In this document: positions 14,101 to 53,600 of the stretch, in pieces
How the letters are laid out: every line of letters begins with the position of its first letter
How positions within the stretch are numbered: position 1 is the stretch's first letter
Source: Terebella lapidaria
Lineage: Eukaryota; Annelida; Polychaeta; Terebellida; Terebellidae
Direction of reading: 5' to 3'
Length of the DNA stretch: 64,000 nucleotides
NCBI GenBank assembly: GCA_949152475.1
Contig: OX424555.1
Location: forward strand, 12,852,868-12,916,867
Notes under the pieces: generated by a model
Databases searched by the model: none
What the model was told of the DNA's origin: nothing
Seen by the model: the letters and a program-made list of their open reading frames with translations, nothing else
Translations under genes and position numbers: made by a program

Positions 14101-17100
14101 TCCGTCTGCTTGACGTGTCCGCTACGGACGTCGCTGAGCTACGTGGGAGGCCGCTTTTCTCAGGCTATACCTACGCCAACCTCTCTCGATCGGATATTTC
14201 CGTCATGCGGGAACATCTCCGGGATGAGGCTATGGCCAAGGCTTTGCTTGGGAAGTCGGCGGGGTCTGGGACAGGCAAGAAGACCAAGGGTCAGAAGCCT
14301 GCCCAACCTCAGGCACCACATGCACCCGCTTCTACGCAGCCGCCCTTTCGGGGGGCGCAGCCTCCCCCTCCCCAGGGGGATGGCAAGCGCGGAGGCAAAG
14401 GGGGTGGACGCTTCAAGGGCAAAGGGAAAGCTTCTGGTAAGAAGTGACTCGTTGCGGGAAAGCGTAGGCTCTGTGGAAGGTTCAGTTCTGTCGGAATTCG
14501 ATCTTCCACAACCTGGTCCAGTCGGGGGACGCCTGGCTCAGTTCGTCCAGAACTGGAGCGATCTGGCGTCGTCAGACAATTCAGTCGTGGCATGGGTGAA
14601 GTTCGGTCTCACCTTCAGATGGGAGGCTGGAAAACCACCGATCAGACCCAAAGCGTGGTTCTTCCCTGTGCCCGGCGATCGGGAAAAGTTTCAGCTTCTG
14701 CAGCACGAGGTGCAGCAGTTGCTAGAGAAACGTGCGATCGAGGTGGTCAAGGACGAGAGAGGATTCTATTCTCTCATCTTCCTAGTGCCGAAAAAGACAG
14801 GCGGGTGGCGTCCCGTTTTCGATCTGTCAAACCTCAACAAATTCCTGATCATACCCAGGTTCAAGATGGAGTCGGCGCTTTCCGTCCAGAAAGCTCTGTC
14901 CAAGGGGAAGTGGGCAGTCAGTATCGACGTCAAGGACGCGTACTTACATGTGCCAATACACCCAGCCGATCGGCGATACCTCAAGTTCGCCTTCGAAGGT
15001 TCGGTGTATCAGTTCAGGGTACTTCCTTTTGGGGTAGCCACCGCCCCTTACGTGTTCACCCGTATCGTAAGGACGATGGCAGCCAGGTTTCGATCGGTTG
15101 GAATTCAATTCCACCATTATATCGACGATTGGTTAATCATAGCCGACTCCCCGTCTCAGGCTATAGAGCAATCCGGGTTCGTCCTCAGGTTGGCGACCAG
15201 CCTCGGCTGGATCCCCAATTGGGCGAAGTCTCATCTGTCCCCGACACAGAGGTTCGAATATGTCGGGGTAGATTACGATCTAGAGCGAGGAGTAGCTCTT
15301 CCTCCGCGGAAGAGAGTTCTCAAGGCGATTGCGGCGATGGAGGTCGCGCTGACGCAGTCGTCGATCACAGCTCGACAGTTTCTGTCCATCATCGGTCTGT
15401 TGGCGTCGATGGAGAAACAGGTGCCGTTCGGCAGGTGCTTCCTCAGACCCATTCAATGGTGTCTAGCGTTGCAATGGCGGATCCTCACCGATCGACTAGA
15501 CCAAGTCGTATCGGTGGACGATCGTGCTCGGGAAGCAATGCATTGGTGGCAGGACCATCGGAATCTTTTCCGAGGGATGCCACTCGCGGAGTATCTGCCC
15601 GATCGGACCTTCTTCACCGATGCGTCAGAATTGGCTTGGGGAGCTCATATGGACGAGCACGAACTCTCTGCTGTGTGGAACACGAGCGAGAGGGCGTTGC
15701 ACATCAATGTCCTAGAGCTGCGAGCGGTGAGACGTGCGTTCGAGATCTGGGGGCCTCAGAGTCCCCCAGGGACGAAGTGGTTGGTCTTCACAGACAACAG
15801 CACAGTAGTGGCGCACCAAAACAAACAAGGTGGAACTCGGTCGAGTCAGCTTTGTTTGGAGGCCGAGTGTCTGATCAGGTTTGCCTTCAAGTACCGTCTG
15901 TTTATCAGGGCGAGGCACCTGCCGTGTCACAGGAATGTCCTAGCGGACGCTCTGTCGAGACCGGACAAGATCATAGGCACGGAGTGGAGTCTGCATCCGG
16001 GGGTGTTTCGGCGCGTTTGTCAGGCGTTCGGGACACCGAACATAGACCTGTTCGCAACCTTTCGGAATCACAAGCTCCCGGTCTACTTCTCACCTCTGCC
16101 AGAGAGCGAGGCACTGGCTGTGGACGCGATGTCTCAGTCGTGGGACGGGATGTTCGGGTATGCGTACCCGCCAACTCGGTTCCTAACAGAAGTGCTGCAC
16201 AAAGTAGCCAGGTCTCAGTGCGAGATTCTGTTGGTGGCGCCATGCTGGCCGATGCAGGCGTGGTTCCCCCTGCTACTGTCCCTCCTGATCGATGTACCAC
16301 GGGTTCTCCCGATCGAGGACAGGTTGCTGAAGCAACCGGGGCGGGATATATTTCACGATTCCGTCCACGTGCTCAAATTACACGTCTGGAGGCTATCGAG
16401 CGATCCTTCCAGGAGGCAGGATTTTCTCAGCAGGTGTCCGTACATCTCGCGAGAAAGAATAGGAGATCCTCCTCTAAAACGTATGAGGCTAAATGGAGAG
16501 TATTCGTACGTTGGTGTAACGGAAGGCGCATTGATCCGCTCTCTGCCCCTCTGAATGCAGTGCTAGACTTTCTCTGCTATCTCTTTGATAGGCTTAATTT
16601 GAAGCCTACTACGATCGAGGGATACAGGTCCATGCTGGGCCCTGTATTCCGTGCTAGGGGGATCGATTTAACTAATAATCGTATCCTTGCTGATCTCTTG
16701 GCGTCCTTTAGGACGCAAAGGCCACGCGGAGTTCCTACTCTACCGGATTGGGACATGGCTTTTGTACTATATTGTCTTACTAAAGCACCTTGGGAGCCTC
16801 TCAAGGAAGTTTCCTTGCAGAGGTTAACTCTTAAGACTTTCCTGCTAGTTATGCTAGCAAGTGGTCGAAGACGCTCAGATGTCGCGGCGATCGACGTATC
16901 GCGAGTCGCATTTGGCGCGGATGGGTCCGTTTCCTTATACCCAGTACGTGATTTTATGCCTAAAACACGTGCTGCAGTTGAGGGCGGGAAAGCGTTCTCC
17001 CCTATCGTAATTCCGTCACTGGGCGGTTACGTAGGACGGAATGAGCCGGACGCTCTATTGTGTCCGGTAAGAGCGCTGAAAATCTACATCGATCGTACCA

Positions 17101-20100
17101 GATCGATCAGGAAAGATCGCAAGCGATTATTTATTTCCTATCAGCCTAACAGGGCTACGGATATCTCCACAGCTACACTATCCCGATGGGTGAAGGTTGT
17201 AGTGAGGACTGTCTATGCGGAATCAGGTGCTGACGATCGAGTCACTTACAAAATATCGTCCCACCAAATCCGACACATCTCGATGTCTTTGGCGGCCAGG
17301 TCGAATATTCCGTTGGAATATATCGTGAGGGCTGGAATGTGGACTAATTCTACGACATTCATCGGGTTCTATCTGTCCAATGCTGCCGAACTTCAGGACC
17401 AGTCGTCCAGATTTAGACTGGGTCCGCTGGTCGTAGCGCAAGCTGTTGTTTGAACCAGCTGGACAGAAAAGTCTTGGTTTTAACGTGCACGTGTATATAA
17501 GCAACACTTTGTGTTTGTGTTTGAGTTCTTTATGATTACGGTCTCAAGTAGAGTTCCGTTTTCCACCGATGGGTGAAGAAGAAATTCGTGCATGTCGGAG
17601 GCAAGCGATCGCACCGCTAGGTGAGTATCTTTATTATATTACTAAAGATATATCGAAAATGTAGCATTTTAGCGATTCGCTTGAAATCAAGACTATCGTC
17701 TGTTTTCATGACTCTCTAGCACTACTGCTCCACCGCCTATCCTTTGATTCTAAGGAGCATGTAGTAGTTTAGATTGGTGATGTATAAAATAAACTTCCCA
17801 AATTTTAATTGTAAATTTGCCGTTTATTGTTATTACTCACCTCTAAACTACTACAGTAAAGGCCCTCCCATCCATCCCCGCCAGTTGTGTGCTAGGGGCT
17901 TCCTTTTGTCGTTTTTTGGACAGAAAAGTGAAGCTTCTGCGCAGCTGCGCGCGCATATGCGCGGCGGTTTTGGCGGCAAAAGGAGCGCTCGAGTCATGCA
18001 GGCAGACGATCGTGCCTTGCTTTCAGTACGCGAATTTCTATCCAGAACGATCCAAAGGATCGAAAAGGAGCATGTAGTAGTTTAGAGGTGAGTAATAACA
18101 ATAAACGGCAAATTTACAATTAAAATTTGGGAAATTTACACTTCTTTGTTCAATTATATCGATTTTTGTTGGCATTTTAACACTGTGCATGATGGTGACT
18201 ATATCTTGAAAATACTAACAATAAAAATGCCGAACAACTTTGATTCCAGCATGCTCCTGCAGCACCCAGGGAACAGTTGGTAACTACGGCTGTGACAAAA
18301 GAACGGGAGAGTGTCGGTGTAAACGATTTGTGACAGGTCGTAGCTGTGACCAGTGTTATGTGAGTAGATGTCATGTATATCAGCAAAAATCTTACTTTAG
18401 TCTGCAATTTATGTGCAATTCTATTTGCTTTGAAAGATTATGAGTGAATCAATTGATCAATCAATCAACATTCAGGAAACTTCAGTTTATTAGACAAATA
18501 GTTATTAGATAAATACAAAAGAAGTATCCATACTACCGGGTACTTATCGTTGTTTGTACAACAAATATGACGTGTTGCTCTTGTAGCCTGGTTACTGGGG
18601 TATGGGAGAGAGTGAGGAGGGTTGCCAGCCCTGTGACTGTGACCCCGGCGGTGCCTATGACAACAACTGTGACATCGTCACTGGTCAGTGTAAGTGCCGA
18701 CCTAACATCCGGGGGCGAACTTGCGACCAGACCATTGATGGATTCTTCCTGCCTGGTCTCGACTTCATCAAATATGAGGCTGAGTTTGCCAATCCTGGAG
18801 GGGTATGTGTGAATACAAGTACATATAATGTGATGAATTTTGATTCAAATTATGAAATGCATAAAAAGTAAAATGATATCCAGTGATAGAATCAATGGTA
18901 TACCAATTGTGATTTTCATGATGTCAATTACCCGGTACACAAAATAAATATTCCCAGTATGGAACAAACATACAGCAGATATTAACAAGAATGGTTTCTA
19001 TGTTGACAGAACTGCCAGGTGTTGATGCGAGATCGTGTTCCGGGGCGGCCTGTGACATGGACGGGGCCGGGTTTCATGAAGGTCATGGAGGGTGATTACA
19101 TCGAGTTCCTGATCGACGACATTCCCAAGTCCATGGAGTACGACCTCCTCATCCGATACGAACCTCAGGTCTGGGCACTGGAAACTGAAAGCTTTGACTA
19201 GAATTGAAGACTTTTAGTGCCATTTGGCATGCATCTGATGACTAGGCATCTAAACTGTGTTTATGGATAGCTGGGATCACTTTGTGTACCCTGGTATCCA
19301 CAATCAAACAATCCATCAATCCAGAACCCTTTTATACTTTACTGATCCCCCGCGTGTAGATGCGAGAGCGTTGGGAGGACGTGCGAGTGACGATCCAGCG
19401 CCCGGGCCCTATAGACCAGCGAGGTCCCTGCGCCAACACAATCCCCCAGGACGATCTCAAGAGTCTCTCCTTGCCTGCAGGTACAACCGCATAGGGTCAC
19501 TGTGGAAGTGGTTTCTATTGAACCATAGTGCTTTGTATTGCATAATTACACAGGTCTAGATATGTCTTGTACATATTGTTACTTACATTGTTAATATTGT
19601 CTCATATTGCTTGCTTTTGATGGTATACGCTGTTTTCCAATATATTGTCTCATGAGTTCTCAATTGTATACATGTATATTCTATATCCTGGAATACCAAT
19701 ACTCCGGCAATGTCACTAACACTGACTTCCTTGCTTACTATAAACTTCTGTAGTTAGAGATTCTTAGATGATGCACTTGCAAGCTCTCATGGTAAAGATT
19801 GGTAGTTTGATTCCAAAACAAATAAGACTTTACCAGTAAACTCACCAGTACAAGTACATATGTATGTGTACATTTATATTAATATATACCATACTTAGAT
19901 TTTTGTTCAGAACCAACCTTTTTGAGAATTGTGTGCATCTTGAAATTTGAACTGTTCAATCATGGTATTTCCTATTCCCTCCCCTTGAGACAAGCTTGCT
20001 CTATCACTGTTCCTGTACATTTCCATGTTGCTTTTGTTATCGTGCATGTAGTTGATCCTGCCATAGTGACTGCCCCTCACTCGAGTGCTGACCAGTATGT

Positions 20101-32100: not shown

Positions 32101-35100
32101 AGTCGGCCCAAATGGGACTTTCCCATGTTAAATTCTCCTATGCTTTATAATGGGACACATTAAAGCCTAATATCTCACTTAATATTGAGATTAGAGACTA
32201 GGAATCAATTGTAGACATATAGGAAATGATATATGCTGAATATTGTCGTGACCTTGAATTTGACCTCTGACCTCATTTTCAAGGTCACAGGACAAAATGG
32301 CTAATATCTCGCTTATTATCGACTTTACAGCTTAGGAATCAGTTGTGAACATATAGGAAATGATATATGCTGAATATTCTTGTGACCTTGAATTTGACCT
32401 TTGACCTCATTTTCAAGGTCACATGGCAAAATGGCTTTCAAGGTCAGAGCGGCCGTTTTCGTCGAAAAATGGCCAATTTTGGACTTCGACGGTCGTTTTC
32501 TCAAAATCTGTTCAGTAACTTTTTTTCTTATTGATGCATGACACTCCTCCTATGTACCCCTGTGACATGTATAAATTTCGTTGAACTTGAATCGCTAGAA
32601 GTGGGCCATTTTGGGCCCAAACTCAGCCCAAATGTGACTTTCCCATGTTAAATTCTCCTATGCTTTCTAATGGGACACATTAAGCCTAATATCTCACTTA
32701 ATATTGAAATTAGAGACTAGGAATGAATTGTTGACATATAGGAAATGATATATGCTGAATAATCTCGTGACCTTGAATTTGACTTTTGACCTCATTTTCA
32801 AGGTCACAGGACAAAATGGCTAATATCTCGCTTATTATCGACTTTACAGCTTAGGAATCAGTTGTGAACATATAGGAAATGATATATGCTGAATATTCTT
32901 GTGACCTTGAATTTGACCTTTGACCTCATTTTCAAGGTCACATGACAAAATGGCTAATATCTCGCTTATTATCGACTTTACAGTTTAGGAATCAATTGTG
33001 AACATATAGGAAATGATATATGCTGAATATTTTCGTGACCTTGAATTTGACCTTTGACCTCATTTCCAAGGTCGCAGGACAAAATTGCTAATATCTCGCT
33101 TATTATCGACTTTACTGCTTAGGAATCAATTGTGAACATATAGGAAATGATATATGCTGAATATTCTCGTGGCCTTGAATTTGAGCTTTGACCTCATTTT
33201 CAAGGTCACAGGACAAAATGGCCAATATCTTGCTTATTAGCGACTTTACAGCTTAGGAATCGATTGTGAACATATAGGAAATGATATATGCTGAAAATGC
33301 TCGTGACCTTGAATTTGACCTTTGACCTATTTTCATGGTCACAGGACAAAATGGCCAATATCTTGCTTATTAGCGACTTTACAGATTAGGAATTAATTGT
33401 GAACATATAGGAAATGATATATGCTGAAAATTCTCATGACCTTGAATTTGACCTTTGACCTCATTTTCAAGGTCAACAGGACAAAATGGCTAATATCTTA
33501 CTTATTATCGACTTTACAGCTTAGGAATCAATTGTGAACATATAGGAAATGATATATTCTGAATATTTTAATGATATTGAATTTGACCTTTGACCTAAAT
33601 TTCAAGGTCAGTCATTTTATTTTCAAAGTCAGATTACAAAATGGCTTATATCTCGCTTATTATCAAATTTACAGCTTAGGGATCCATAGTGAACATATAG
33701 GAAATGATGTATGCTGAATAGTTTGGTGATCTAGAATTTAACCTTTGATCCCATTTCCAAGGTTAGAGATATGGCGATTTCAGTGGTCACCTTGAATTTG
33801 ACTTTCAACTTTCTCGGCTTAACTCTGTATATTTCTCCGGTAACCTTACTAGCCCATTGGGCTAATTTTTTGTGTTGTCATTGAATGCCTTCGTCTACAG
33901 ATTGCAGAAGAAGTATTGGCAATGTCGATATCGCTGACACCAGAAGAGATTCTGGAACTTGTCAGGAAAATCAATGAGACAATCGGAGATCTCAAAGATA
34001 TTGATGACATCCTTGAGGAGGCTCAGAATGATCTGGACCAGGCTGAGGGCCTCAAAGATAGAGCTGATAATGCCAGGTAAGCTGAGAGCAGGTCAGATAA
34101 AGCTAGGTAAGCAAAGACAGAGCTGATAATGCCAGGTGAGCAAAGAGCAGGTCAGATAAAGCTAGGTAAGCAAAGACAGAGCTGATAATGCCAGGTGAGC
34201 AAAGAGCAGGTCAGATAAAGCTAGGTGAGCAAAGACAGAGCTGACAATGCCAGGTAAGCAAAGACAGAGCTGATAATGCCAGGTGAGCAAAGAGCAGGTC
34301 AGATAAAGCTAGGTGACCAAATACAGAGCTGATAATGCCAGGTAAGCAAAGAGCAGGTCAGATAAAGCTAGGTGAGCAAATACAGAGCTGATAATGCCAG
34401 GTGAGCAAAGAGCAGGTCAGATAAAGCTAGGTGAGCAAATACAGAGCTGATAATGCCAGGTGAACAAAGAGCAGGTCAGATAAAGCTAGGTAAGCAAAGA
34501 CAGAGCTGATAATGCCAGGTGAACAAAGAGCAGGTCAGATAAAGCTAGGTAAGCAAAGACAGAGCTGATAATGCCAGGTAAGCAAAGAGCAGGTCAGATA
34601 AAGCTAGGTGACCAAATACAGAGCTGATAATGCCAGGTGAGCAAAGAGCAGGTCAGATAAAGCTAGGTAAGCAAAGACAGAGCTGATAATGCCAGGTGAA
34701 CAAAGAGCAGGTCAGATAAAGTGAGGTAAGCAAAGACAGAGCTGATAATGCCAGGTGAGCAGGTCAGATAAAGCTAGGTAAGCAAAAACAGAGCTGATAA
34801 TGCCAGGTGAGCAAAGAGCAGGTCAGATAAAGTGAGGTAAGCAAAGACAGAGCTGATAATGCCAGGTGAGCAGAGAGCAGGTCAGATAAAGCTAGGTAAG
34901 CAAAAACAGAGCTGATAATGCCAGGTGAGCAAAGAGCAGGTCAGATGAAGCTAGGTGAGCAAATACAGAGCTGATAATGCCAGGTGAGCAAAGAGCAGGT
35001 CAGATAAAGCTAGGTAAGCAAAGACAGAGCTGATAATGCCAGGTGAGCAAAGAGCAGGTCAGATAAAGCTAGGTGACCAAATACAGAGCTGATAATGCCA

Positions 35101-38100
35101 GGTAAGCAAAGACAGAGCTGACAATGCCAGGTAAGCAAAGACAGAGCTGATAATGCCAGGTGAGCAAAGAGCAGGTCAGATAAAGCTAGGTAAGCAAAGA
35201 CAGAGCTGATAATGCCAGGTGAGCAGAGAGCAGGTCAGATAAAGCTAGGTGAGCAAATACAGAGCTGATAATGCCAGGTGAGCAAAGAGCAGGTCAGATA
35301 AAGCTAGGTGAGCAAATACAGAGCGGATAATGCCAGGTGAGCAAAGAGCAGGTCAGATAAAGCTAGGTAAGCAAATACAGAGCTGATAATGCCAGGTGAG
35401 CAAAGAGCAGGTCAGATGAAGCTAGGTGAGCAAATACAGAGCTGATAATGCCAGGTGAGCAAAGAGCAGGTCAGATAAAGCTAGGTAAGCAAAGACAGAG
35501 CTGATAATGCCAGGTGAACAAAGAGCAGGTCAGATAAAGTGAGGTAAGCAAAGACAGAGCTGATAATGCCAGGTGAGCAAAGAGCAGGTCAGATAAAGCT
35601 AGGTGACCAAATACAGAGCTGATAATGCCAGGTAAGCAAAGACAGAGCTGACAATGCCAGGTAAGCAAAGACAGAGCTGATAATGCCAGGTGAGCAAAGA
35701 GCAGGTCAGATAAAGCTAGGTGAGCAAATACAGAGCTGATAATGCCAGGTAAGCAAAGAGCAGGTCAGATAAAGCTAGGTGACCAAATACAGAGCTGATA
35801 ATGCCAGGTAAGCAAAGAGCAGGTCAGATAAAGCTAGGTAAGCAAAAACAGAGCTGATAATGCCAGGTGAGCAAAGAGCAGGTCAGATAACGAATAGCAG
35901 AACAAATAATGCCAGATAAGTGAAAGGCAGAGCAGAATATGCCATGTAAGGTGAGATAATGCCAGGTAAGCGGAGAGCAGAACAAACTGCCTTTTGCAAA
36001 TTGGCAAATTTTGGTGCTTTGATTTTGAATTACATGTGTATTCTATCTCAGACAAAATGCTGAGGATATCCTGGAACTGGCGCAGAGGATTATTGATGCC
36101 CTTCGTGAGGCAGAAATAGCCCAAGGTGGTGCTGAAGATTCCATTGAACAAGCCAATGTAAGTACACCTTATAAAACAAATAAGAATCATTTGCTGAGAT
36201 CATTTGCTGAAGAAATATTACTTGGTTCATAGTTACTTTACAGCTAGTACTTTTCATAGAGGCAGCAAACTGGTTAGAGCTACTGCCATGTAAACAAAAC
36301 ACCAACAAAATAATCAATTTTCACCTTACAGTCTGACATAGCGGCCGCAGAAGATGACCTGTTGATGGTTGAGAACCAGACCTCTATTGCGGAGACGAGC
36401 TCGCGGGCGACACTGGACCTGGTGCGAGAGCTGCAGGACCGACTCCGTGAACTCATCAAGAAGTACACGGAGAACGAGGAGAACGTCAAACTGGCCCAGG
36501 AAGAGGCAGAGAAGGCTGAAGACGAGGCCATGAAAGCTGAGGAGGTCAGTGCTTCTCTGTCTGGGACGGGTTTGTGTCTGAGATGAGGTGTGGGCTTCAC
36601 GGATTGAAATTTAACTGACAATGGGTGCGCAACTGAAATTTACACTATCTACAAGGTAATGTTATTTTGGCATGTTGTGGTTTTCGATATTAGTTGTAAT
36701 AACAAAACGAAAAATATATTGTGCTGACAGACAGTTTTGCAATATGTTTTATAAAACCAAGACTTTTATTTTACATTTCAGAATGCAAATAATCTTCAAG
36801 TAGAATACGAACAAGTCACAATAAGAATCCAGTCTAAATACAACATGACAATGAATAGCAAAGAAAAGGCTGACAGGTTGATACAGGAGGCACGAAAGCT
36901 GTATGATGAAACTTTATACAAACGAAATCAGCTTGCAGGTATGGTATTACATGTCATCATATATGGGCTTGGTGTTCTGGCACCTTCACTTTCAGTAGTG
37001 TCCGTCTTCTGATTCAAATTTAGAGGGTTTTAGACTGGATAAATGTGATACAGTGCTGAATATTTCATGATGGATTACTGTTAGTTGATAACAGGAATTC
37101 AGACTTCATTAAACTTTAGGATTCATTGTATTTATTTTCAGCGCTAGTTGTCATTCAGTAAATAAATTCCGACTGATGATTTTGTCACAGTTTGAGCAAA
37201 CACTCTCGCAGACATTGATGGATGTTGCTTGCCCTCCGATTTTGTACAGGAATGGAAGCTCGGTTTAGATCCAATGAGGACAAAATAAACCGAGTGTCGG
37301 TAGATGTTACAGAGCTGCTCAGGAGGATGGAGAATTATGTGGCATCCATTGTGGATGTCGCACGATTCCACCGAAGCTGTGGAACCGCGTAGACATGATG
37401 TCACCAGCTCTCATACACTGCCCACTGTTGTGTTTTCAATGTGTTAGTAGCAGTTACAATTTGCTTCCTATCACACAGCTTTCCAACCCATCTTCCCTGA
37501 TTTTTTGCCAGTTTTTCTTGCGTGTGGCTTTGGTTTATTATATCCCTCATTTATTGTCCATTATAACATTTTTAGCCTAGGAGATGACAATCACAAGGAT
37601 ATTTGCATAAAGTCTTTCAGTTGACTACATTGTGTACTCAAGTGAATGTAATAGACTTTTGAATACTAAAAAAGGCAAATATCCTTGGAAGATTGGACCT
37701 AATGTACATATACTGTAACATTTATTCAACCCTAAAGTTCTTTGCTGTGTATGTAAGATAATGTTGAAAATTGATTTTCTTGATTGTATAAATTAGCATT
37801 CAAGGTATGATGCATCATCAATACACAGCAAAGAATTAGGTGCTGGACTTTGTTTTGCTGCATAAATCAAAAAGCGATACCAATGGTGCAGAAGTTATGA
37901 TCACTTTATCATAGTAATATGGGATTATTATGCTGTACTGTATCAGTTTTGATTTATGCATGCACTATAATAGTTTTAAACTATATTATCTGTTTATGTT
38001 TGAATTTTTTTCAAAATGTTTACCGTATTTGCGTTTGTGGGTTTGAATTTTTTTGTTTCATTTTAATTCTGTTCATCTTCATATTTTCTTACATTTATGG

Positions 38101-38555
38101 TGGTGGTACTTCGAAAAACACCCTAGACTAGTTTGGTATACCTTTTAGATAATATGTAGATTAGCTTGGTATATCTACTAAGTAATAAGTAGATTTGTAG
38201 TTTTGCTTGTGTTAAGCTGATATTAAATTATGATGTTTGAACATGCTAACCAATAAAAGTATGCTATTTTATGAGTATTTTCAGTGGTATAAAAAAGCAG
38301 TATCATCTTCAGAATTTTGACTTTTGACCATGTTATTCGAAAAAAACCCAAAAAAACAAACAAACATAAGAGACAATTACTCAGCATATTTGAGAATTAT
38401 TATTTGGTTGTTGCTTTACAGAAATGGAGACGATATTCACTAAGAATGAGGAGATTCTGATTGACCTCACAGACCAGTTAGCAAGTCTTTTGGCTCGCAT
38501 GCAACTCTACACCAACGACATCATCTTTGCCGCACAGTACCTGCGAAACTGCTGA
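4554..38555 (+). CDS. LAMB1-like: Laminin subunit beta (beta-1-like), 5' part outside the window
   Basis: Secreted laminin beta chain, a subunit of the alpha/beta/gamma heterotrimer of basement membranes. Exons by eye: 4554-4671, 4985-5130, 10011-10131, 11088-11276, 11500-11679, 18250-18359, 18587-18802, 19010-19168, 19360-19480, (20052-20252), 20607-20734, 20844-21033, 21155-21298, 21419-21814, 21950-22174, 22348-22547, 22664-22760, 25080-25303, 25466-25641, 26070-26254, 26430-26665, 26789-26974, 27134-27310, 33901-34076, 36052-36157, 36332-36544, 36782-36938, then 37250-37392 or 38422-38555. Every junction is GT-AG and the phases fit throughout. The frame gives 1636 residues plus stop with the optional exon, 1569 without. 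Order: LN end, LE1-5, LF, LE6-13, coiled coil with beta knob, C-terminal Cys. This is the beta-1/beta-2 architecture, with 13 LE repeats and a complete LF module. The signal peptide and about 190 N-terminal residues are missing to the left. Confidence 0.95.
5131..10010 (+). other. LAMB1-like: Laminin beta intron, 4.9 kb
   Basis: Intron between the exons ending at 5130 and starting at 10011. It is AT-rich with scattered TACATGTA-like palindromes. Several 60-106-codon open frames occur on both strands, but none has family similarity or splice logic that I can see. No RNA gene or structured element was recognised. Confidence 0.7.
10011..11679 (+). CDS. LAMB1-like: Laminin beta: LE1 to LE3 (3 exons)
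   Basis: Exons 10011-10131, 11088-11276 and 11500-11679. LE1 continues as [21 protein letters not shown]2 runs from [14 protein letters not shown] through [22 protein letters not shown]3 is [16 protein letters not shown] to [12 protein letters not shown] modules are about 50-60 residues with eight cysteines in four disulphides and form the rod of the short arm. All three exons end in phase 1, the usual LE pattern. The intron at 10132-11087 carries a hAT-like MITE, and the intron after 11679 carries the DIRS element. Confidence 0.95.
10282..10952. mobile_element. hAT-like non-autonomous element (MITE)
   Basis: Starts CAGGGCTTCTGGTAG and ends CTATCCGGAGCCCTG, an imperfect inverted terminal pair of a type common in hAT elements. 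The interior (about 670 bp) has no transposase. It contains 'gggggcgcacaag' and 'gggggcgctgcag' and is less AT-rich than the host intron. I see no convincing 8-bp target duplication, which leaves the family assignment tentative. Confidence 0.55.
11775..11932. repeat. DIRS left inverted terminal repeat
   Basis: About 155 bp that match 17922-18081 in reverse complement with few or no differences. Within it are 'ttttcgatcctttggatcg' and the palindromic run 'gcgcatatgcgcgcgcagc'. The outermost bases (11744-11774) are not part of the inverted match but are copied in the internal complementary region. Confidence 0.9.
12348..14447 (+). CDS. DIRS ORF1, Gag-like protein
   Basis: About 699 residues from the ATG at 12348; the frame is open slightly upstream through a GTG. 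The N-terminus has three CxxC pairs (CPKC, CFDC, CDLC) in its first 60 residues, consistent with a zinc-binding head. The middle is Ser/Pro/Arg-rich with basic runs, and the C-terminus is Gly/Lys-rich ([16 protein letters not shown]), as expected for nucleic-acid binding. No catalytic motif is visible; the Gag assignment rests on position and composition. The DNA is strikingly rich in GATC, mostly as CGATCG. Its end overlaps the next ORF by 68 nt. Confidence 0.8.
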   Translation: MTSQSSLGTGAMDERPCPKCLVNTLRGGEKHSLCFDCLDHGPVSMEDLRCDLCRFWRPSSFVQATAKYSEASLARRDALRLAEASAPQVRQSPMEVETPPVTAQIASGVSQPLGLTQDMVNAAVQSFFAQSLSSLQGPLLPGLSSLLGQGVPAGSSAAPSSQGELAPPAGKKSKSSKKKVSVLAKAKAAKEPHSTFVVPQSGSIEVEGSVVSSPGPSKKRKRASSKRRGAETTSIFDVAQASSDLSVGDDQASGFDRRSILDGSFGSSVSRFEGGEFPLFGGEALDRSCDRESSLGGRAPGPRSGHDRAGGAGIVPQGHSSPVYADVSRPTGAIAEQAFPRPSFDVPLGSSRSSIGPVRSNDRGGRVEADQESSSSEDETSDQAGGSNFRWALESVARRMDLPIDAPGPSRGTGRFASAPVRRPIRLPVAPALVKSFDKINKGVTAKKDVARTESTFPTSRVRPESIDTYRTVESEGGHQTSVPVEDPNLHLLSRKQGTVWSAYVKKARLSHWQTLSHQLMGQLSLTDHLTTLVQEFVDEADLEEGSRANIHAALGVLAGVVHAAERDSAHLGAQLDLTMRDADLRLLDVSATDVAELRGRPLFSGYTYANLSRSDISVMREHLRDEAMAKALLGKSAGSGTGKKTKGQKPAQPQAPHAPASTQPPFRGAQPPPPQGDGKRGGKGGGRFKGKGKASGKK
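14380..16554 (+). CDS. DIRS ORF2, reverse transcriptase - RNase H - putative Dam-like methylase region
   Basis: About 724 residues from the ATG at 14380; the frame is open from 13957. The RT shows [20 protein letters not shown], the [13 protein letters not shown] motif, [14 protein letters not shown] and the catalytic YIDDWLI box (15120-15140). The RNase H shows [19 protein letters not shown] and FTDNSTVV with a downstream ALSRPD. After it comes a region with [25 protein letters not shown] and [12 protein letters not shown], which corresponds to the segment compared with Dam N6-adenine methylases in DIRS elements. No stop or frameshift is seen. Start choice between 13957 and 14380 is uncertain. 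It copies element RNA into DNA. Confidence 0.9.
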   Translation: MASAEAKGVDASRAKGKLLVRSDSLRESVGSVEGSVLSEFDLPQPGPVGGRLAQFVQNWSDLASSDNSVVAWVKFGLTFRWEAGKPPIRPKAWFFPVPGDREKFQLLQHEVQQLLEKRAIEVVKDERGFYSLIFLVPKKTGGWRPVFDLSNLNKFLIIPRFKMESALSVQKALSKGKWAVSIDVKDAYLHVPIHPADRRYLKFAFEGSVYQFRVLPFGVATAPYVFTRIVRTMAARFRSVGIQFHHYIDDWLIIADSPSQAIEQSGFVLRLATSLGWIPNWAKSHLSPTQRFEYVGVDYDLERGVALPPRKRVLKAIAAMEVALTQSSITARQFLSIIGLLASMEKQVPFGRCFLRPIQWCLALQWRILTDRLDQVVSVDDRAREAMHWWQDHRNLFRGMPLAEYLPDRTFFTDASELAWGAHMDEHELSAVWNTSERALHINVLELRAVRRAFEIWGPQSPPGTKWLVFTDNSTVVAHQNKQGGTRSSQLCLEAECLIRFAFKYRLFIRARHLPCHRNVLADALSRPDKIIGTEWSLHPGVFRRVCQAFGTPNIDLFATFRNHKLPVYFSPLPESEALAVDAMSQSWDGMFGYAYPPTRFLTEVLHKVARSQCEILLVAPCWPMQAWFPLLLSLLIDVPRVLPIEDRLLKQPGRDIFHDSVHVLKLHVWRLSSDPSRRQDFLSRCPYISRERIGDPPLKRMRLNGEYSYVGVTEGALIRSLPL
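16380..17453 (+). CDS. DIRS ORF3, tyrosine recombinase
   Basis: The recombinase domain occupies about the last 350 codons of a frame open from 14592, so its real start is not obvious; the 3' end of ORF2 overlaps its beginning. The catalytic signature is complete: Arg in [10 protein letters not shown] (about 16860), His-x-x-Arg in HQIRH (about 17262-17276) and the nucleophilic Tyr in FIGFYLSNA (about 17370). The N-terminal SAM-like part includes [14 protein letters not shown]. The enzyme integrates a circular DNA copy without duplicating the target. It replaces the DDE integrase of LTR elements and is the hallmark of DIRS and Ngaro groups. Confidence 0.9.
   Translation, partial: TRLEAIERSFQEAGFSQQVSVHLARKNRRSSSKTYEAKWRVFVRWCNGRRIDPLSAPLNAVLDFLCYLFDRLNLKPTTIEGYRSMLGPVFRARGIDLTNNRILADLLASFRTQRPRGVPTLPDWDMAFVLYCLTKAPWEPLKEVSLQRLTLKTFLLVMLASGRRRSDVAAIDVSRVAFGADGSVSLYPVRDFMPKTRAAVEGGKAFSPIVIPSLGGYVGRNEPDALLCPVRALKIYIDRTRSIRKDRKRLFISYQPNRATDISTATLSRWVKVVVRTVYAESGADDRVTYKISSHQIRHISMSLAARSNIPLEYIVRAGMWTNSTTFIGFYLSNAAELQDQSSRFRLGPLVVAQAVV
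17750..17838. repeat. DIRS internal complementary region (circle junction)
   Basis: Reads as two joined pieces. The first, 'gtagtttagattggtgatg', continues into 'tataaaataaactt' and is the reverse complement of the left end (11744-11785). The second, from 'cccaaattttaattg' through 'tattactcacctctaaac', is the reverse complement of the right end (about 18077-18131). In DIRS elements this segment serves as the template that aligns the two termini during circle formation. It also fixes the outer ends of the element. Confidence 0.88.
17920..18133. repeat. DIRS right inverted terminal repeat and right end
   Basis: 17922-18081 matches the left terminal repeat in reverse complement. The last bases, 'acaattaaaatttggg' up to 18131, are unique to the right end and are copied in the internal complementary region. 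An open frame through it is a by-product. Confidence 0.88.
18250..18802 (+). CDS. LAMB1-like: Laminin beta: LE4 and LE5 start (2 exons)
   Basis: Exons 18250-18359 and 18587-18802. LE4 is [19 protein letters not shown] to [20 protein letters not shown]5 starts [20 protein letters not shown] and, as in beta chains, is cut short to lead into the LF module ([20 protein letters not shown]). The first exon completes a phase-1 codon left by 11500-11679, so the 6.4-kb DIRS insertion leaves the reading frame unharmed if it is spliced out. Confidence 0.93.
19010..21033 (+). CDS. LAMB1-like: Laminin beta: LF (domain IV) module
   Basis: Exons 19010-19168, 19360-19480, optional 20052-20252, 20607-20734 and 20844-21033. 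Typical beta-chain LF landmarks: [71 protein letters not shown] and [18 protein letters not shown]. The 5' edge of the first exon may be 19010 or 19019; both keep the frame. The module is globular and found in beta-1/beta-2-type chains. The optional exon adds 67 residues in the middle and is described separately. Confidence 0.92.
19481..20051 (+). other. LAMB1-like: Laminin beta intron
   Basis: AT-rich intron before the optional LF exon, with nothing recognisable beyond splice sites (donor gtacaa at 19481, acceptor 'gcatgtag' ending at 20051). Confidence 0.6.
20052..20252 (+). CDS. LAMB1-like: Phase 1-1 cassette exon encoding an acidic Tyr/His-rich insert in LF
   Basis: 201 nt (67 codons), open, bounded by 'gcatgtag' and a strong donor gtaagt at 20253; a donor 3 nt upstream (20250) also keeps phase. 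It enters and leaves in phase 1, so it can be skipped without a frameshift: without it the protein reads LPAG-SRYFLV, as in other laminin betas. The insert includes [18 protein letters not shown] and [20 protein letters not shown], rich in Asp, Tyr and His, without cysteine. I know of no counterpart in vertebrate beta-1. Codon pattern, flanking sites and phase fit support it as coding, but whether it is always or sometimes included cannot be told. Confidence 0.75.
21155..25303 (+). CDS. LAMB1-like: Laminin beta: LE6 to LE13 (6 exons)
   Basis: Exons 21155-21298, 21419-21814, 21950-22174, 22348-22547, 22664-22760 and 25080-25303. Eight LE repeats follow each other, starting [70 protein letters not shown] and [10 protein letters not shown]. 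The count and order match vertebrate beta-1. The last exon runs on through [18 protein letters not shown] into the long-arm coiled coil. The 2.3-kb intron 22761-25079 holds a hairpin element and a copy of the repeat family with hairpin ends. Confidence 0.95.
22865..23003. mobile_element. Near-perfect hairpin element of about 139 bp
   Basis: Arms of 49 bp (22865-22913 and 22955-23003) pair with only three mismatches by eye. The left arm begins gtgtgttttccagcacgc and the right arm ends gcgtgctggaaaacacac. The 41-base centre holds a further stem ('gagcac' with 'gtgct'). It lies 18 bp before the start of a repeat-family copy at 23022. It is probably a very small foldback MITE; a hairpin RNA source is an alternative. 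Confidence 0.8.
23022..24556 (+). repeat. Interspersed repeat with hairpin ends, copy A
   Basis: Starts with a hairpin (23022-23050, AGGTTACCGGACC / GGTCCGATAACCT), then a CGTC-rich microsatellite (about 23065-23102) and a body of two tandem subunits of about 450 bp. Each subunit has 'cttcataatgggagctgt', 'aaaatggcggccattttt' and clusters of TGACCTTGAA. It ends with CCGGTAACCT and a second hairpin TTAGCC-TTTG-GGCTAA (24534-24549). The short inverted ends AGGTTACCGG / CCGGTAACCT mark it as one unit. No protein domain is seen; the family is probably non-autonomous. Confidence 0.8.
25466..26974 (+). CDS. LAMB1-like: Laminin beta: first coiled-coil half and beta knob (4 exons)
   Basis: Exons 25466-25641, 26070-26254, 26430-26665 and 26789-26974. 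Heptad-rich sequence ([40 protein letters not shown]) forms the long-arm triple coiled coil with alpha and gamma chains. The exon at 26789 encodes the Cys-rich loop unique to beta chains, [20 protein letters not shown] followed by [10 protein letters not shown]. The acceptor at 25466 was chosen over 25461 because only it keeps the phase. The presence of the knob confirms a beta chain. Confidence 0.94.
25833..26010. mobile_element. Short MITE, TA-flanked, pogo/Tigger-like ends
   Basis: 178 bp with terminal inverted repeats of about 25 bp: CAGTGGTCCTCCTCAGATAA at the left and TTATCTGAGGGGGACCACTG at the right, flanked by TA on both sides (25831-25832 and 26011-26012). CAGTGG ends with TA duplication fit Tc1/mariner-pogo type non-autonomous elements. 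It is intronic, between the exons ending at 25641 and starting at 26070, and has no coding capacity. Confidence 0.85.
27134..27310 (+). CDS. LAMB1-like: Laminin beta: coiled-coil exon
   Basis: 177 nt, phase 0-0, encoding [20 protein letters not shown] to [11 protein letters not shown]. It follows the knob exon and resumes the heptad pattern. The donor gtgagt at 27311 opens a 6.6-kb intron filled with repeats. Confidence 0.93.
28341..28369. repeat. Variant hairpin end of the repeat family
   Basis: AGCTTACCGGCCC-TTT-GGGCCGATAAGCT. Compared with the hairpins at 23022 and 27371 it differs at two paired positions, and both changes keep the pairing. It is followed, as in the other copies, by 'attgtcgtgg' and a CGTC-rich microsatellite. 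Confidence 0.85.
29900..30238 (+). mobile_element. SINE with a 5S rRNA-like head
   Basis: The first 85 bases resemble 5S rRNA, including GATCACCGAAGTTAAGCAAC (29935-29954) and the internal control region's last block TGGATGGGTGACC (29973-29985). This is the arrangement of RNA polymerase III SINEs of the 5S (SINE3) type. A body of about 250 bp follows, ending in 'attattat'. The 6-base AATGAC occurs at both sides (29894-29899 and 30239-30244) as the target duplication, inside repeat copy B. It is not a functional 5S gene, since only the middle of the 5S sequence is preserved and a foreign body is attached. Confidence 0.82.
31831..33870 (+). repeat. Interspersed repeat with hairpin ends, copy C, without its 5' hairpin
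   Basis: Follows copy B directly. It has the usual body start ('gcggccattttc', 'ttctcaaaatctgttcag'), then a 134-bp tandem array, and ends with CCGGTAACCT-like 'ccggtaacctta' and TAGCCCATTGGGCTA (33850-33864). The 5' hairpin and CGTC tract are absent. Confidence 0.7.
32150..33775. repeat. 134-bp tandem array, about 11 units
   Basis: The landmark 'aggaaatgatatatgctgaa' begins near 32221, 32355, 32740, 32874, 33008, 33142, 33276, 33409 and 33544, with steps of 133-135 bp, and a diverged copy at 33699. One interruption lies between 32430 and 32650. Each unit has 'gtgaccttgaatttgacctt' and 'aatatctcgcttattatcgac'. It is intronic and non-coding. Confidence 0.9.
33901..34076 (+). CDS. LAMB1-like: Laminin beta: coiled-coil exon next to the splice-site minisatellite
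   Basis: 176 nt, phase 0 to 2, encoding [20 protein letters not shown] to [10 protein letters not shown]. Its last bases, 'agagctgataatgccag', followed by donor gtaagc, are the sequence multiplied in the adjacent minisatellite. If this first donor is missed, the frame meets TAA straight away (AGG TAA). Confidence 0.92.
34077..35985 (+). repeat. 59-bp minisatellite, about 30 units, each carrying two 5' splice-site copies
   Basis: The unit has two halves: 'gtaagcaaagacagagctga' then 'taatgccag' (29 bp), and 'gtgagcaaagagcaggtcag' then 'ataaagctag' (30 bp). Each half starts with AG|GTAAGC or AG|GTGAGC when read with the previous half, that is, a good 5' splice-site consensus. The first half reproduces the 3' end of the laminin exon at 33901-34076. 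Units vary by a few substitutions (gtgagc, gtaagc, gtgacc, gtgaac) and by occasional loss of a half. The array decays after about 35890. Minus-strand Leu/Ala/Ser-repeat open frames are by-products. Confidence 0.95.
36052..36938 (+). CDS. LAMB1-like: Laminin beta: distal coiled coil (3 exons)
   Basis: Exons 36052-36157, 36332-36544 and 36782-36938. Heptad sequence throughout, for example [19 protein letters not shown] stretches and [20 protein letters not shown]. The first exon completes the phase-2 codon left at 34076, so the minisatellite intron (34077-36051) is spliced as one. The last exon ends in phase 1, which both alternative last exons accept. Confidence 0.93.
37250..37392 (+). CDS. 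LAMB1-like: Alternative last exon A of laminin beta
   Basis: Accepts the phase-1 codon from 36938 (acceptor 'ttgtacag') and encodes [20 protein letters not shown] to RFHRSCGTA then TAG. The Cys three residues before the end matches the conserved C-terminal Cys that laminin beta uses to bond the gamma chain. A poly(A) signal AATAAA at 38252-38257 lies before exon B, so this exon could have its own 3' end. It is the same length to the Cys as exon B (43 residues from Met) with about one third identity. Confidence 0.85.
37393..38421 (+). other. LAMB1-like: 3' UTR of exon A / intron before exon B
   Basis: AT-rich, no coding feature. Contains AATAAA at 38252-38257, a plausible poly(A) signal for exon A. 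The acceptor for exon B is 'tgctttacag' ending at 38421. Confidence 0.6.
38422..38555 (+). CDS. LAMB1-like: Alternative last exon B of laminin beta
   Basis: Accepts the same phase-1 codon and encodes [20 protein letters not shown] to AAQYLRNC then TGA. The terminal residue is the conserved Cys. Aligned without gaps to exon A it shares 14 of 43 residues (M, E, F, NE, LL, RM, Y, I, A, R, C). It is clearly a duplicate of the same ancestral exon. Confidence 0.88.
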
Positions 38556-47740: not shown

Positions 47741-50679
47741 TCAATATTTATTCAGTGAACGTCTTTCCTTGAGTAGAAGGTCATTCTGAAATGGAAATAT
47801 ACATTCATGCAATATAGATTTATTACTGAAATCATATCGTGCTACCTAAGATCCATTATTGTGCAATACTTGAATCAAATATTTGAGTATACCTGAACCT
47901 CGCGTGCCAACTTGAAGACGGTTTCTCTATCCTGCACATTGGGAAGCATACTTGCAAGCCTGGTTGTGGTGGTTGGGTGAGACAGCATCTCAATCAGGAC
48001 CGGGTCACCAGACAGTATCCTTCTGATAGTTGGGTCGTGACAGCTGATGTTCTCAGCTCCACTTGTCGAAGCTCTTCCATAAGATCCTTCTACACTCCGA
48101 GAACTTGTTGATGATGAATCATGAGAGTTGTGCAATGGGTGATGACGTACGTTCTGGGACCGTCTGCCTTTTGGACGAGTTGGAGAACGACTCCTGGACT
48201 TTGAAAATTGTCTACTGTCGTCATCATAGTGAGCGATTCTCTCGAGAGAACTGCTTCTCCTATCACCAGACACAACACTACTGCTTGGACTTGCTTCTCT
48301 GTGACCTCTGGTAATGGTAACCTTTCGTTCCGTGCGTAGCTCTGGGACAGGACTTTTTCTCATCTGTGATGGATTTCCTTTTCTCTCTGACAACACATCG
48401 GGAATATTCCTCTCATGCTGTGGAGATGAAGACTGGAGAATGTCTGAGGCTTTCCTGAACATTTCTGTCTTTGGTTTTATTGCTGATTGTTCGCATGTCT
48501 TGGATGAATTTGTTAACTCAGTCCTGTGCTCTGTCTGAGATTTGTAATCTGACCGCCACGGTGTATTGTCTACCCTTATGGTACGACGTTCTGTGATGGT
48601 AGAACCAATGGCATCACCAGAAGAACTTACACTGTGTGCGTGGGTCGCACCATCAGGCTTGATGTCCCACCTATTTTTGGATTTTTTCTTTTGTGCCTTG
48701 CTGCTATCTTCCCATGTGTCTTCTTTTGAAGTCAATTGTGAGTCATTGTTGTTCACAGAAATCAGACGATCCTCTTTGTACGTCGATTGTGCGTCGAAGA
48801 ATGTTGAGCCTTCAGATATATCTGTAGTTTTACCTATCATGAGTCCTGTGCTTGATTCAAGAACTGGCCGCCAATCTACATCACCATATTGGTCACATGG
48901 TTCGGTATCAACGTTGGCAGTTCTGTCGCTAACAGAAGCAGAACAAACCTCGATTTGACATGAATCACTGATGTCTGATATATCCATATCTTGTATACTA
49001 CACTCATCTCCTATAGGTGTGGGCATCGTTGATTTGGTGTTATTATCTGTCAAATCCGTACTTGTTGAATCAAGATTTTCTCCACTTTTATGTTCTATTG
49101 CATCATCTCCTTTGCTGCATGCTTTCAATATAGCAAGTAAACTTGAAACCTTTCTGTCGATCTCGTCTTTGTCAGGTATATTGGGTTGCTCAGTGAATCC
49201 ATTACCTTTGAAATGACTGGTTTCATCTGTGTCTTCTGCATCAGTTCTGAGCACAACATTTCTAGTGTCTGAAATATGTTTTGTGTGGTCCAGGAGCATC
49301 AGGGCTGCTTGTTCACCCGAACTGGTCTCAATATTCTCTGGATCTACTCCAGTGTCATCGACAGGGAAGCGTGAACTTGACAGTGGGTCACTATGTACTT
49401 GAACATCCCCAATTTGCATGTTTTGATCAGTCCTAGACGAGGAAGGATCCACGAATTCGTCCTTATTTGAGATAGACTGGGAATTTTTTGTGTCATCTGC
49501 CGGTACTGTGATATCTATATCCCTGCAGATACTCCCCGTTTTCATTCCTTCTTCATCTCCACAGTCATGTGGTAGTTCCATTGTATGTTTACAGACTTGG
49601 TCAGTGGGAATCTGTTCAGTGGGAATCTGTTCAATCGACTTACTTGGTGAAGTGTTCCCTGAACATGATGACCCTTCTTTGACTGAACCTGCATCCGTAC
49701 TCATATTCACTGGAGCAGTGGCTGAGTCTGTGTTCACATTCATATCTAGAGATGTACAATCATCACCGACTTGGCATTCACGTGACGGTTGCTTGCCTGT
49801 GTTGCGAGTTGTAATGTCATTGGTCGGATGCTGCTCAGGAGTGGAAGATCTTGAGTCAGAGGATACAGACATCTTTTCTTCTTGTGGGGTCTTCTGGTGG
49901 AGGGCACCTTTGCTGGGTACGTTTGTGTCTGACTTCTCCTTGCGCAATTGGACTACAGGAATTATCCCAGTATCGTTGCCGATTTCAGAATCTGTTCCAA
50001 TCTTGCTGGTCGGTTTCTCGGAAACCTCACTGATAGTCAGGGGTGTTGATGGTGCTTCTAAACCAGGTATATCTGTGCACACATTGTGATCAAAGATGGA
50101 ATCATGCTGTTCACCAGCAGCCTTTGGCAAGATCACCTTGTTAGGGGCAGATTCTTTTCCTTTCGACTCACAGCTTGGTGTCCGTGACCTCTGTCTCGTG
50201 AATTTCTTTTCTGCAAGACAGGCATGTAGAGGATGACTAAATCTTCAATATCAATCAACTACAATTGAAAAAGATGAACAACATGGGGAAATAGTTGTGA
50301 TACTACTTGTAATACTACAATATACTATATAACATGATCATTTGGCATATTTGGCAAAATACAACATTATGACATTAACCTGTCACACCCTCTTTGGTCC
50401 TTGCAGCAGCAGTTTTACAGAAAACCCAGACACCATTCTCTGTGCGCTGGAAAAACATACAATACAGTGCATATTAGTTTCAGACACATCGTTTGTGACA
50501 CATACAAATTTGAAAGCAATATATCTGGAAAAGCTGGCATTCGCCATACCTTCATTATCTTACTTACTTGCACAAATCGCAAAATCTTCAAATACAATTC
50601 CAGATTGGCGATACGTTCTTCAATGTAACCAATGAGTTCATCAGAAGATCCATTGTCATGTAGAGCTTGTTCACCCTTT
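47741..50679 (-). CDS. TEX15-like: TEX15-like: C-terminal exons
   Basis: Exons 50679-50568 (helical, DELIGYIEERIANLELYLKI), 50446-50380 (RTENGVWVFCKTAAARTKEG), 50210-47893 (772 codons; acidic and Ser/Thr-rich, then an Arg/Ser-rich stretch SKSRSRSPTRPKGRRSQN and an ordered end DPVLIEMLSHPTTTTRLASM) and 47785-47741 (NDLLLKERRSLNKY, stop TGA). The last codons contain AATAAA (47752-47747), which overlaps the stop; a second AATAAA on this strand lies near 47247. Confidence 0.7.
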
Positions 50680-53600
50680 CTGCAAGATTAATGATAACAC
50701 AAATGCAATGTGATATTTTAAACGTCACATAAAATGCACTTTTCTATGTTTGAGAATATTCTCCAACCTGCACCAGAGAATCCGAGAGCTGAGTTTCTGC
50801 AGAACCGATTCTTTGTTGTTTGGCATGTTGATACATATTTGACAAAGTGTTTCTTTTCTCTCTCCATGTAGCCATCCAAGTCTCAACCTTCCTTGCTGTC
50901 TCTCACCATACGGTGTCTTAGGATTGCTTACCAACTTCTTCTGAGATAGTATCGCTTCCTTCAAGGCATATAACTTTTTGCAGTCAGCCTCATTCAAAGT
51001 TGACACTAGGAAAAGCATATTTCCTTCAACAGAAATATACTTATTCATTTCTTGTGGAAGACGGAATATATCTGGTAGGACTTCCACGACACTGCTTTTG
51101 TGAAACCTATTCAGCCCCTCAAGGTCTTTGAAAAACTTCTCATACCTTACGTCCATCACCTTTATTTCCTGACGCAAGCGTTTCAAGTCTTGATCTGGAA
51201 TACCCATTTTCTGTTGATGATCTGCTTCCTGTCGCAACTGAGTGATTCTAAGAAGTAAAGACTGCATGTTGTCTTCAATTTTCAATTCATTAGCCACCCG
51301 GCAATTTAGGCTTTCTGATGCCATCAATTTTTTACGCCTTTCAGAAGTCAATCCCTTTGTCGGGTCATTAAACAACATTGAATCATCCACTTCGGAAATA
51401 TGCTCATGCAGAATATCTGACATTTCTCTGTTCAGGGATTCCCACTCCAATACGTTGAGCTCCCATACTCTCATCATTGCCAAACGGGTGCTATCGTCAT
51501 GTCCTCCAACATGTTCTTCCGAAAGAATGCTGGTTTCTCTTTCTTCTTTACCGTGTCGGGATTTATCCAGCATGTTTGACCACATGCTACCTGCTTTATG
51601 TCCTTTCGTATGTGATGCTTTTTCAGTAGCTTCTGATTTCTTTGCATTCGATCTGGTCTCCTTCTCTGCATTATGGTCTGGACTTTCTCCGACAGATTTT
51701 GCGGATTGATGGCTTTCACTACACGTCTTTTCAACAGAATGACTAAGGTCAGGTCCCTTTTCGGTTGCGACATTGTTGGATGATCGTCTATGGCTCACAA
51801 TCTCTGGTTTCAGTGTTGGCACAAGAGGTATTTTGCTAGTGTACTTTGTCAGTTTCCTTCCAACATGCTCTTCTTTACCATCAAGTGTATGTTGTCTAAG
51901 CCTGAGCCTGGGATCTGTCTTGCACTTCCCATATCCCTCAATCCTTTTATAGCATGTGCCGTGTGGAACTTCAAAATCATACACAATAAAATTCCATGGG
52001 TCATTCTTTGCTTGAGAATCACAGCGTGAATGCTTATCTGACGGTACTCGTTGGGGAAGATGGGATGATGTGGGCCTTATTTCTTGATTCACATTGATAC
52101 TTTTTTGTTTCAAAAGAAACGGTCCTTTGTTCGGTTTTGCACATATGCTTGTTTCCCAAAGCTTGTTCACCTTGGACTTTGCTTCACACCCCATGTCTTT
52201 TTCAATGGCCAAGGAGGCATCAATCTCTGGCTTCCCTGTATACGATACAGTAGATTTGTGATCTTTGGATTGAGGCATACTTCCCAAAGAATGCCTGCGA
52301 GGGTCCCTGTTCATTTCGGTGGTACGTCCATCCGGGGAAGCCAGTGGGCTAGTTGTCTGAAGGGGAGAAAGTATGACAGAATCACTTGCCGATGAAGCTG
52401 AATCCGTTCTAATTCTTGGTGAAGTTGCACATGAACCTGGACGTTGAGATCTGTAATTCTGATTCCTGTGAATTTGTGGTTGCTCTTCAGTTGAAGCAGT
52501 GTTTATAGCTGAAAAGGCTAATAATGCAATTGTGTTTGCTTCAACCGCATTGATGTCCAAGGAATTTTGTGCCTTACCACCATAAGCAACCGATTTCGTG
52601 GATGGTAGTCGACTGGTACCAATTCTAGATGGTGGCATAAGGTTTTGCTGACCAGAAACTGCGTTTCCATGAAAACCAGGTGGTTTTTGTGAGAAAGTTT
52701 GTGATCGTTCATTACCTGAAGCATGTGATTTTTGTGACTGGGTTGACGGCCGTGTATTGCCTCTCCCATAGGTTCTAGGGTCCCCACGATTGGGTTTCTT
52801 ATAGGGTTGTGGATATTGAGATCTGGGATCAAGTGGCAAATTTGGTCTTGGTACTGTATATCCATGAAGTTGACTCTCTCGGGTCATACTTGGTACCGTG
52901 TGTCCATGAGGTTGATCTCCTCTGGTCATACTTTTGGTCTTCATCACCTTTGATGTCACAGGTGTTGGCTCCTTCACATCAACATTTGCCGAACGAGATG
53001 ATTGATTTGGACTGAGCAATTTCAATGCTTTTGACACCAGTTCACTGACTTCTTCTTTTGACATATTCTTAGACTCTTGCGAAGTTGCTTCTTCGGTAGA
53101 TTTTCTCACAGTTGATCTGTTCCCAACTGATGATGTTCGCTTTATTTTCATTCCTGGAGGCATTGCTGGATACTTGGGATGACTGACATAAACATCCTTG
53201 TCAATATCAATTTTCTGTGCAGATACTTTGGACTGTTCAGGATTTTCATTTCTGGAATCTTTGTTCACAGCAGTTTCTGGTTGCAACACATGATCTTCAT
53301 CTGATTTATCAGTAGAAGTTCTAGCTGATTTAATCTCGTCTTGTGCAGCCTTTGCTGGTTCCGATTCAATGGTTTTGAGAGTGGATTTTGGTTTTTCTGT
53401 TTTACCTGATGAAGCCGAACCTTTACCTTTTTGGTTTAACCTGATCAGGGTACTCAGCCATTGTGTAGGATCTTGACATGGTTTTGGAGAATCAGCCATT
53501 TCTGTGTATCCATCATATAAGCAGCTTTCATCTTCCTTCTTCTTTTCACCCATGAATATTCTTTCACACGTTTCTGCCCATTTTTCGCTGTTGGGTATGG

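What the first reader, a model, noticed from the sequence alone, without database searches (positions are those of the whole stretch)
34060..35985. A minisatellite made of an exon's own 5' splice site: about 60 donor-like sites in 1.9 kb
The 59-bp unit contains the last 17 bases of the laminin exon 33901-34076 plus its donor, and a second half also starting with a donor (AG|GTGAGC). So directly after the true splice site lie about 30 units with two consensus donors each. Any donor other than the first would add an in-frame TAA or TGA at once (AGG TAA or AGG TGA). The donor core is kept in most units while other positions vary. This could be a U1 snRNP sink, a splicing timer, a switch for nonsense-mediated decay of laminin mRNA, or simply replication slippage that selection tolerates because U1 picks the first donor. 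I know of no described case of a splice-donor satellite of this kind.
Basis: partly seen in the sequence, partly recalled or inferred. Interest (0 to 1): 0.85.

Follow-up and report, generated by a model that had tools for sequence, protein, structure and literature searches.

The report
Splice-donor "mirage" minisatellite in laminin gene
In an invertebrate laminin gene the end of one exon, with its splice signal, has been copied head to tail about sixty times into the intron behind it; the same kind of repeat is already known from lancelets and a human gene, and nothing seen here shows that the extra splice signals are kept for a purpose.

Summary
Behind the donor of a laminin beta exon (33901-34076) lie 61 half-units (33 of 29 bp, 27 of 30 bp, one of 23 bp) and a decayed tail, filling 1909 of the intron's 1976 bp. 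The commonest 29-bp half-unit equals the last 24 exon bases (23 of 24) plus GTAAG, so the array grew by repeated duplication of the exon/intron boundary. Its 62 core donors, the true one included, are AGGTRA; 53 are AGGTRAG. None has more matches to the donor consensus than the first; reading past it meets TAA at once. The functional readings are not supported: donor positions vary as often as the rest (5 of 18 sites against 7 of 41, p=0.48) and +5G is lost in 9 of 62; the test is weak. "No described case" is wrong: such arrays are called "mirages" in amphioxus, where splicing is reported normal, and human IFI6 has a splice-donor minisatellite. The window's laminin groups with an annelid sequence (no lancelet was in that tree). 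This is a large new member of a known kind.

The parts
33901..34076 (+). laminin beta coiled-coil exon whose 3' end was duplicated
   Evidence: translation; homologs; alignment
34053..34081 (+). source segment: last 24 exon bases + GTAAG, 28 of 29 identical to the rotated commonest A half-unit
34077..34082 (+). authentic 5' splice site CAG|GTAAGC (8 of 9 matches to the donor consensus, joint best of the array)
   Evidence: no residues inserted at this junction in 119 of 120 homolog rows
34077..35866 (+). core minisatellite: 61 half-units (33 A of 29 bp, 27 B of 30 bp, 1 of 23 bp), mostly alternating
35867..35985 (+). last partial core unit, then a decayed tail with two broken donors (AGATAAG, ATGTAAG) and two AGGTRAG (35949, 35964)
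35986..36052 (+). remaining 67 bp of the intron with the acceptor ...TATCTCAG; no similarity to the unit beyond shuffles
36053..36157 (+). next laminin exon (phase 2 junction, AG|A)

Best explanation
It is a boundary minisatellite ('mirage'). A segment of about 29 bp made of the last 24 bases of a laminin beta exon and the first 5 of its intron was tandemly duplicated; a diverged copy (B) and the original (A) formed a 59-bp dimer that expanded by slippage or unequal exchange to 61 half-units. It lengthened an intron that is otherwise 67 bp to 1976 bp. The first donor, joined to the exon and as good a match to the consensus as any in the array, is the one used; the copies are removed with the intron and are tolerated passengers, kept alike by turnover inside the array and diverging at its 3' edge. 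Shown: structure, origin, absence of a sign of extra donor conservation, protein continuity when the first donor is used. Inferred: use of the first donor in RNA, tolerance, mechanism and order of expansion.
For: Commonest A half-unit = exon end + GTAAG, 28 of 29 identical. Halves A and B homologous. Variable sites 5 of 18 in donor windows and 7 of 41 elsewhere, Fisher p 0.48; the eight AG|GT sites being invariant has probability 0.14 by chance. +5G replaced in 9 of 62 donors. Two tail donors broken. No array donor exceeds the first in matches to the consensus; 10 equal it. Joining the first donor to 36053 continues the laminin coil: 119 of 120 homolog rows have no residue inserted there (9 homolog rows were printed and looked at). 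No pyrimidine run over 2 in the array, so no acceptor-like stretch inside. Precedent: amphioxus mirages reported not to disturb splicing.
Against: GT and +4A are invariant in the core, which weak selection could also give (chance 0.08 for ten sites); but the core was cut at intact donors, and the stretch behind 35867 with broken ones fell outside it by that rule. Only 12 variable sites, so little power; the 23-bp unit was left out. Two of the tail's AGGTRAG are intact. Copies match the consensus about as well as, or better than, 18 other donors of the gene (mean 6.8 against 6.3), so some later use is possible, and the globin paper itself warns of cryptic use. No RNA data.
Confidence: 0.85

Rival explanations
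1. The copies act as decoy donors: a share of transcripts use a later donor, gain the TAA at 34078 and are destroyed, so that array length tunes laminin output.
For: Immediate in-frame stop for every later donor; 10 later donors equal the first in consensus matches; IFI6 shows that copies in such an array can be used (PMC4526556 passage).
Against: No sign of extra conservation of donor positions; +5G lost in 9 of 62; mirage genes in amphioxus are reported to splice normally.
Confidence: 0.08
2. U1 platform: the array binds many U1 particles and shields the intron from early polyadenylation or slows splicing.
For: 62 donors in 1.8 kb; GATAAA, which I recall as a weak variant of the polyadenylation signal, occurs 26 times in the array.
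Against: Rests on resemblance alone; no AATAAA or ATTAAA in the array, no conservation signal, intron short without the array.
Confidence: 0.03
3. On a separate question, not excluding the best explanation: the intron itself was born from the duplication (Rogers-type AG/GT duplication, as proposed for amphioxus globins) rather than being an older intron expanded at its 5' end.
For: 1909 of 1976 bp of the intron are array or tail; the model is in print for mirages.
Against: The last 67 bp and the first 60 bp of the next exon show no similarity to the unit (shuffle p 0.66-0.78); the array has no acceptor-like stretch. Intron position in relatives could not be read.
Confidence: 0.1

Closest known systems
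Amphioxus 'mirages' (Adh3, globins BflGb6/BflGb9, PGBD5, troponin C; passages of PMC3087553 and PMC3902484)
   Same: Minisatellite-like tandem duplication spanning an exon/intron boundary; many copies carry AG/GT; units of 10-72 bp (Adh3) to about 160 bp (globins); edge units escape homogenisation; normal splicing reported
   Different: The host here groups with an annelid sequence; 61 half-units (BflGb6 has 3 and 6 units in two haplotypes, BflGb9 a duplicate); a 59-bp A/B dimer is the expanded unit; splicing not tested
Human IFI6 (6-16/G1P3) splice-donor minisatellite (Turri et al. 1995; title seen in reference lists only)
   Different: In IFI6 two downstream repeat units are used as donors and give isoforms (PMC4526556 passage); its unit is about 12 bp (recalled). 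Here every later donor adds a stop at once
Intron formation from tandem repeats at exon borders (Rogers model; PMC2812944 passages; PMC4974935 listing and abstract start only)
   Same: Tandem duplication of a stretch holding an exon/intron border or AG|GT
   Different: Here an existing donor was copied many times behind itself and no acceptor-like stretch arose in the array

Membership tests
Mirage (boundary minisatellite) | Tandem repeat whose unit spans an exon/intron boundary | tested here: met
   Commonest A half-unit = 24 exon bases + GTAAG, 28 of 29 identical
Mirage (boundary minisatellite) | Copies carry AG/GT splice signals | tested here: met
   62 AGGTRA donors in the core, the true one included
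Mirage (boundary minisatellite) | Homogenised inside, diverged units at the edge | tested here: met
   Core 92% matches; 3' tail aligns to the unit with many differences, two donors broken
Mirage (boundary minisatellite) | Normal splicing despite the copies | not testable with these tools
   Only indirect: no residues inserted at the junction in 119 of 120 homolog rows
Mirage (boundary minisatellite) | Length instability between haplotypes or cells | not testable with these tools
   One haplotype only
Mirage (boundary minisatellite) | Described host group: lancelets (a matter of range, not of structure) | tested here: inconclusive
   Points away from lancelets: the window groups with Ridgeia, an annelid, and three unnamed sequences (support 0.999; 58 of 120 homologs used), and no listed homolog exceeds 50% identity. 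But no lancelet row was in the tree
IFI6-type used splice-donor minisatellite | Several copies used as donors in mRNA | not testable with these tools
   No RNA; later donors would give TAA at once

The most novel reading that the evidence does not exclude
The array is a length-variable dial: some transcripts use one of the later donors that match the consensus as well as the first, take up the immediate stop and are destroyed, so that array length sets laminin beta output in this animal.
Probability: 0.06. Interest if true: 0.7.

Novelty: new member of a known kind. Interest (0 to 1): 0.32.

Why it matters
It carries the mirage phenomenon, which the passages I read describe in lancelets (with a cousin in human IFI6), to a laminin gene of what is probably an annelid, with far more copies than the globin cases. 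Such arrays are natural tests of how the splicing machinery picks one donor among dozens of near-equal neighbours.

Tried and rejected
Donor conservation as a sign of function: not found, positions vary as much as others. Higher-order repeat: no clear period; the ten best unit lags share 21-29% of unit types, and the longest identical block is 6 units against a mean of 3.9 (largest 7) in 500 shuffles. Origin from the downstream exon, the 67-bp flank or the rest of the upstream exon: no similarity beyond shuffles. Other boundary duplications in this gene: of 19 donors and 19 acceptors examined within 3 kb, only donor 34076 has a strong nearby copy (55 of 60, largest shuffle 24); acceptors 22348 and 25080 match each other (31), acceptor 21950 equals its largest shuffle (23), and donor 36544 matches the array weakly (26, largest shuffle 23). 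The 22348/25080 match I put down to both exons opening a cysteine-rich domain (inference). Solved structures: no hit up to E 0.01 for the 261-residue coil. RNA folds of three stretches of the array were computed and gave nothing that I used. Exon borders were set by eye; laminin exons between 18802 and 21155 were not all placed, and the frame at 25303/25461 did not join cleanly. The counts given to Fisher's test were typed into the script from the columns, which leave out the 23-bp unit (1 of 61) and the tail.

Literature: eight searches were answered; two found nothing. The 1995 IFI6 paper and the 2002 Adh paper are not held; I know them from reference lists and other authors' passages.

Full report
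What is there. The stretch 34060-35985 lies in intron 34077-36052 of a laminin beta gene on the + strand. The gene was identified with a 1221-residue chain of the window's exons: 3032 proteins matched at E up to 0.001, and of the 120 listed nearly all that carry an informative name are laminin beta (some are called only hypothetical or unnamed, many have no name, and one bears an unrelated automatic name). No listed hit exceeds 50% identity, so a record of the species itself is not in that list, and no Branchiostoma name is shown in it. A single FastTree of 58 of the 120 homologs places the window with Ridgeia (an annelid) and three unnamed sequences, support 0.999. Against too firm a reading: branches inside that group are weak (0.197, 0.612), another annelid, Owenia, falls elsewhere, and no lancelet was in the tree. 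The host is probably an annelid.

Anatomy. TRF finds 31.1 copies of 59 bp. Cutting at intact donors gives 61 half-units: 33 of type A (29 bp), 27 of type B (30 bp), one of 23 bp, mostly alternating. The commonest A (14 of 33) is GTAAG plus CAAAGACAGAGCTGATAATGCCAG; the exon ends CAAAGATAGAGCTGATAATGCCAG|GTAAG, 28 of 29 identical. Type B aligns with A far above shuffles even when the shared donor is left out (0 of 5000 shuffles reach it); the first B, read in the exon's frame, spells AESRSDKAR, much like the exon's [12 protein letters not shown] (read by eye). After 35890 come diverged units, two with broken donors and two AGGTRAG at 35949 and 35964, then 67 bp without similarity, then the acceptor.

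Is it more than chance? The array is beyond doubt. AGGTRAG occurs 65 times in the window on both strands against 13.1 expected (largest of 100 shuffles 21), 55 of them in the array. Of 19 donors tested in the gene, only this one has a strong copy nearby.

Are the donors under selection? Among the 62 core donors AG|GT and +4A do not vary, but +3 is A or G in both types, +5 is C in five and A in four, and -3 varies in B. Counted by site, 5 of 18 donor positions (-3 to +6, both types) vary against 7 of 41 others (p 0.48). The chance that the eight AG|GT positions are spared is 0.14 (0.08 with +4A). Limits: 12 variable sites only; the 23-bp unit and the tail are left out; and the core was defined by cutting at intact donors, although no double-length unit appears before 35867. 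Weak constraint is not excluded, but there is no sign of it. Changes at +5 speak against upkeep; the short tail, with two donors broken and two intact, says little either way.

Which donor is used? Joining the first donor to the acceptor at 36053 continues the laminin coil: 119 of 120 homolog rows have no residue inserted at that junction, 1 has; 9 homolog rows were printed and align across it. By matches to the donor consensus the first donor scores 8 of 9; of the 62 later donors counted (to 35966) 10 equal it and none exceeds it; 18 other donors of the gene average 6.3, the array 6.8. Reading on past the first donor meets TAA at 34078, so a later donor yields a shortened protein and a message that should be a target of nonsense-mediated decay (general knowledge). 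The array is 70% purine with no pyrimidine run over 2, so it offers no acceptor-like stretch.

What is known. [quoted passage not shown] 1995 in reference lists); PMC4526556 says that two downstream repeat units serve as donors (passage). PMC2812944 (passages) says that variable repeats at an exon-intron boundary may form new introns in human duplicated genes.

Verdict. Structure, origin and variability are shown; donor use, instability and the mechanism of expansion are inferred. It is a new and large member of a known kind, probably in a host outside the lancelets.

Noticed in passing
37249-37392 and 38420-38555: Two consecutive exons both look like the last laminin beta exon (ending ..FHRSC and ..YLRNC), which suggests alternative C-terminal ends; their DNA was aligned once.
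   Followed up: partly
32167-32436 and 32686-33763: 134-bp tandem repeats rich in TGACCT motifs in the intron just upstream of the same exon, ending 137 bp before it; they do not span the boundary.
   Followed up: no
539-2750: 147-bp tandem repeat, 15 copies, 95% matches.
   Followed up: no
12333-17450: Long open frames with reverse-transcriptase-like words (recalled, not searched) inside a laminin intron, perhaps a retroelement.
   Followed up: no
47875-57821 (- strand): Long open frames of 789, 1803 and 490 codons on the other strand, perhaps one neighbouring gene; not identified.
   Followed up: no
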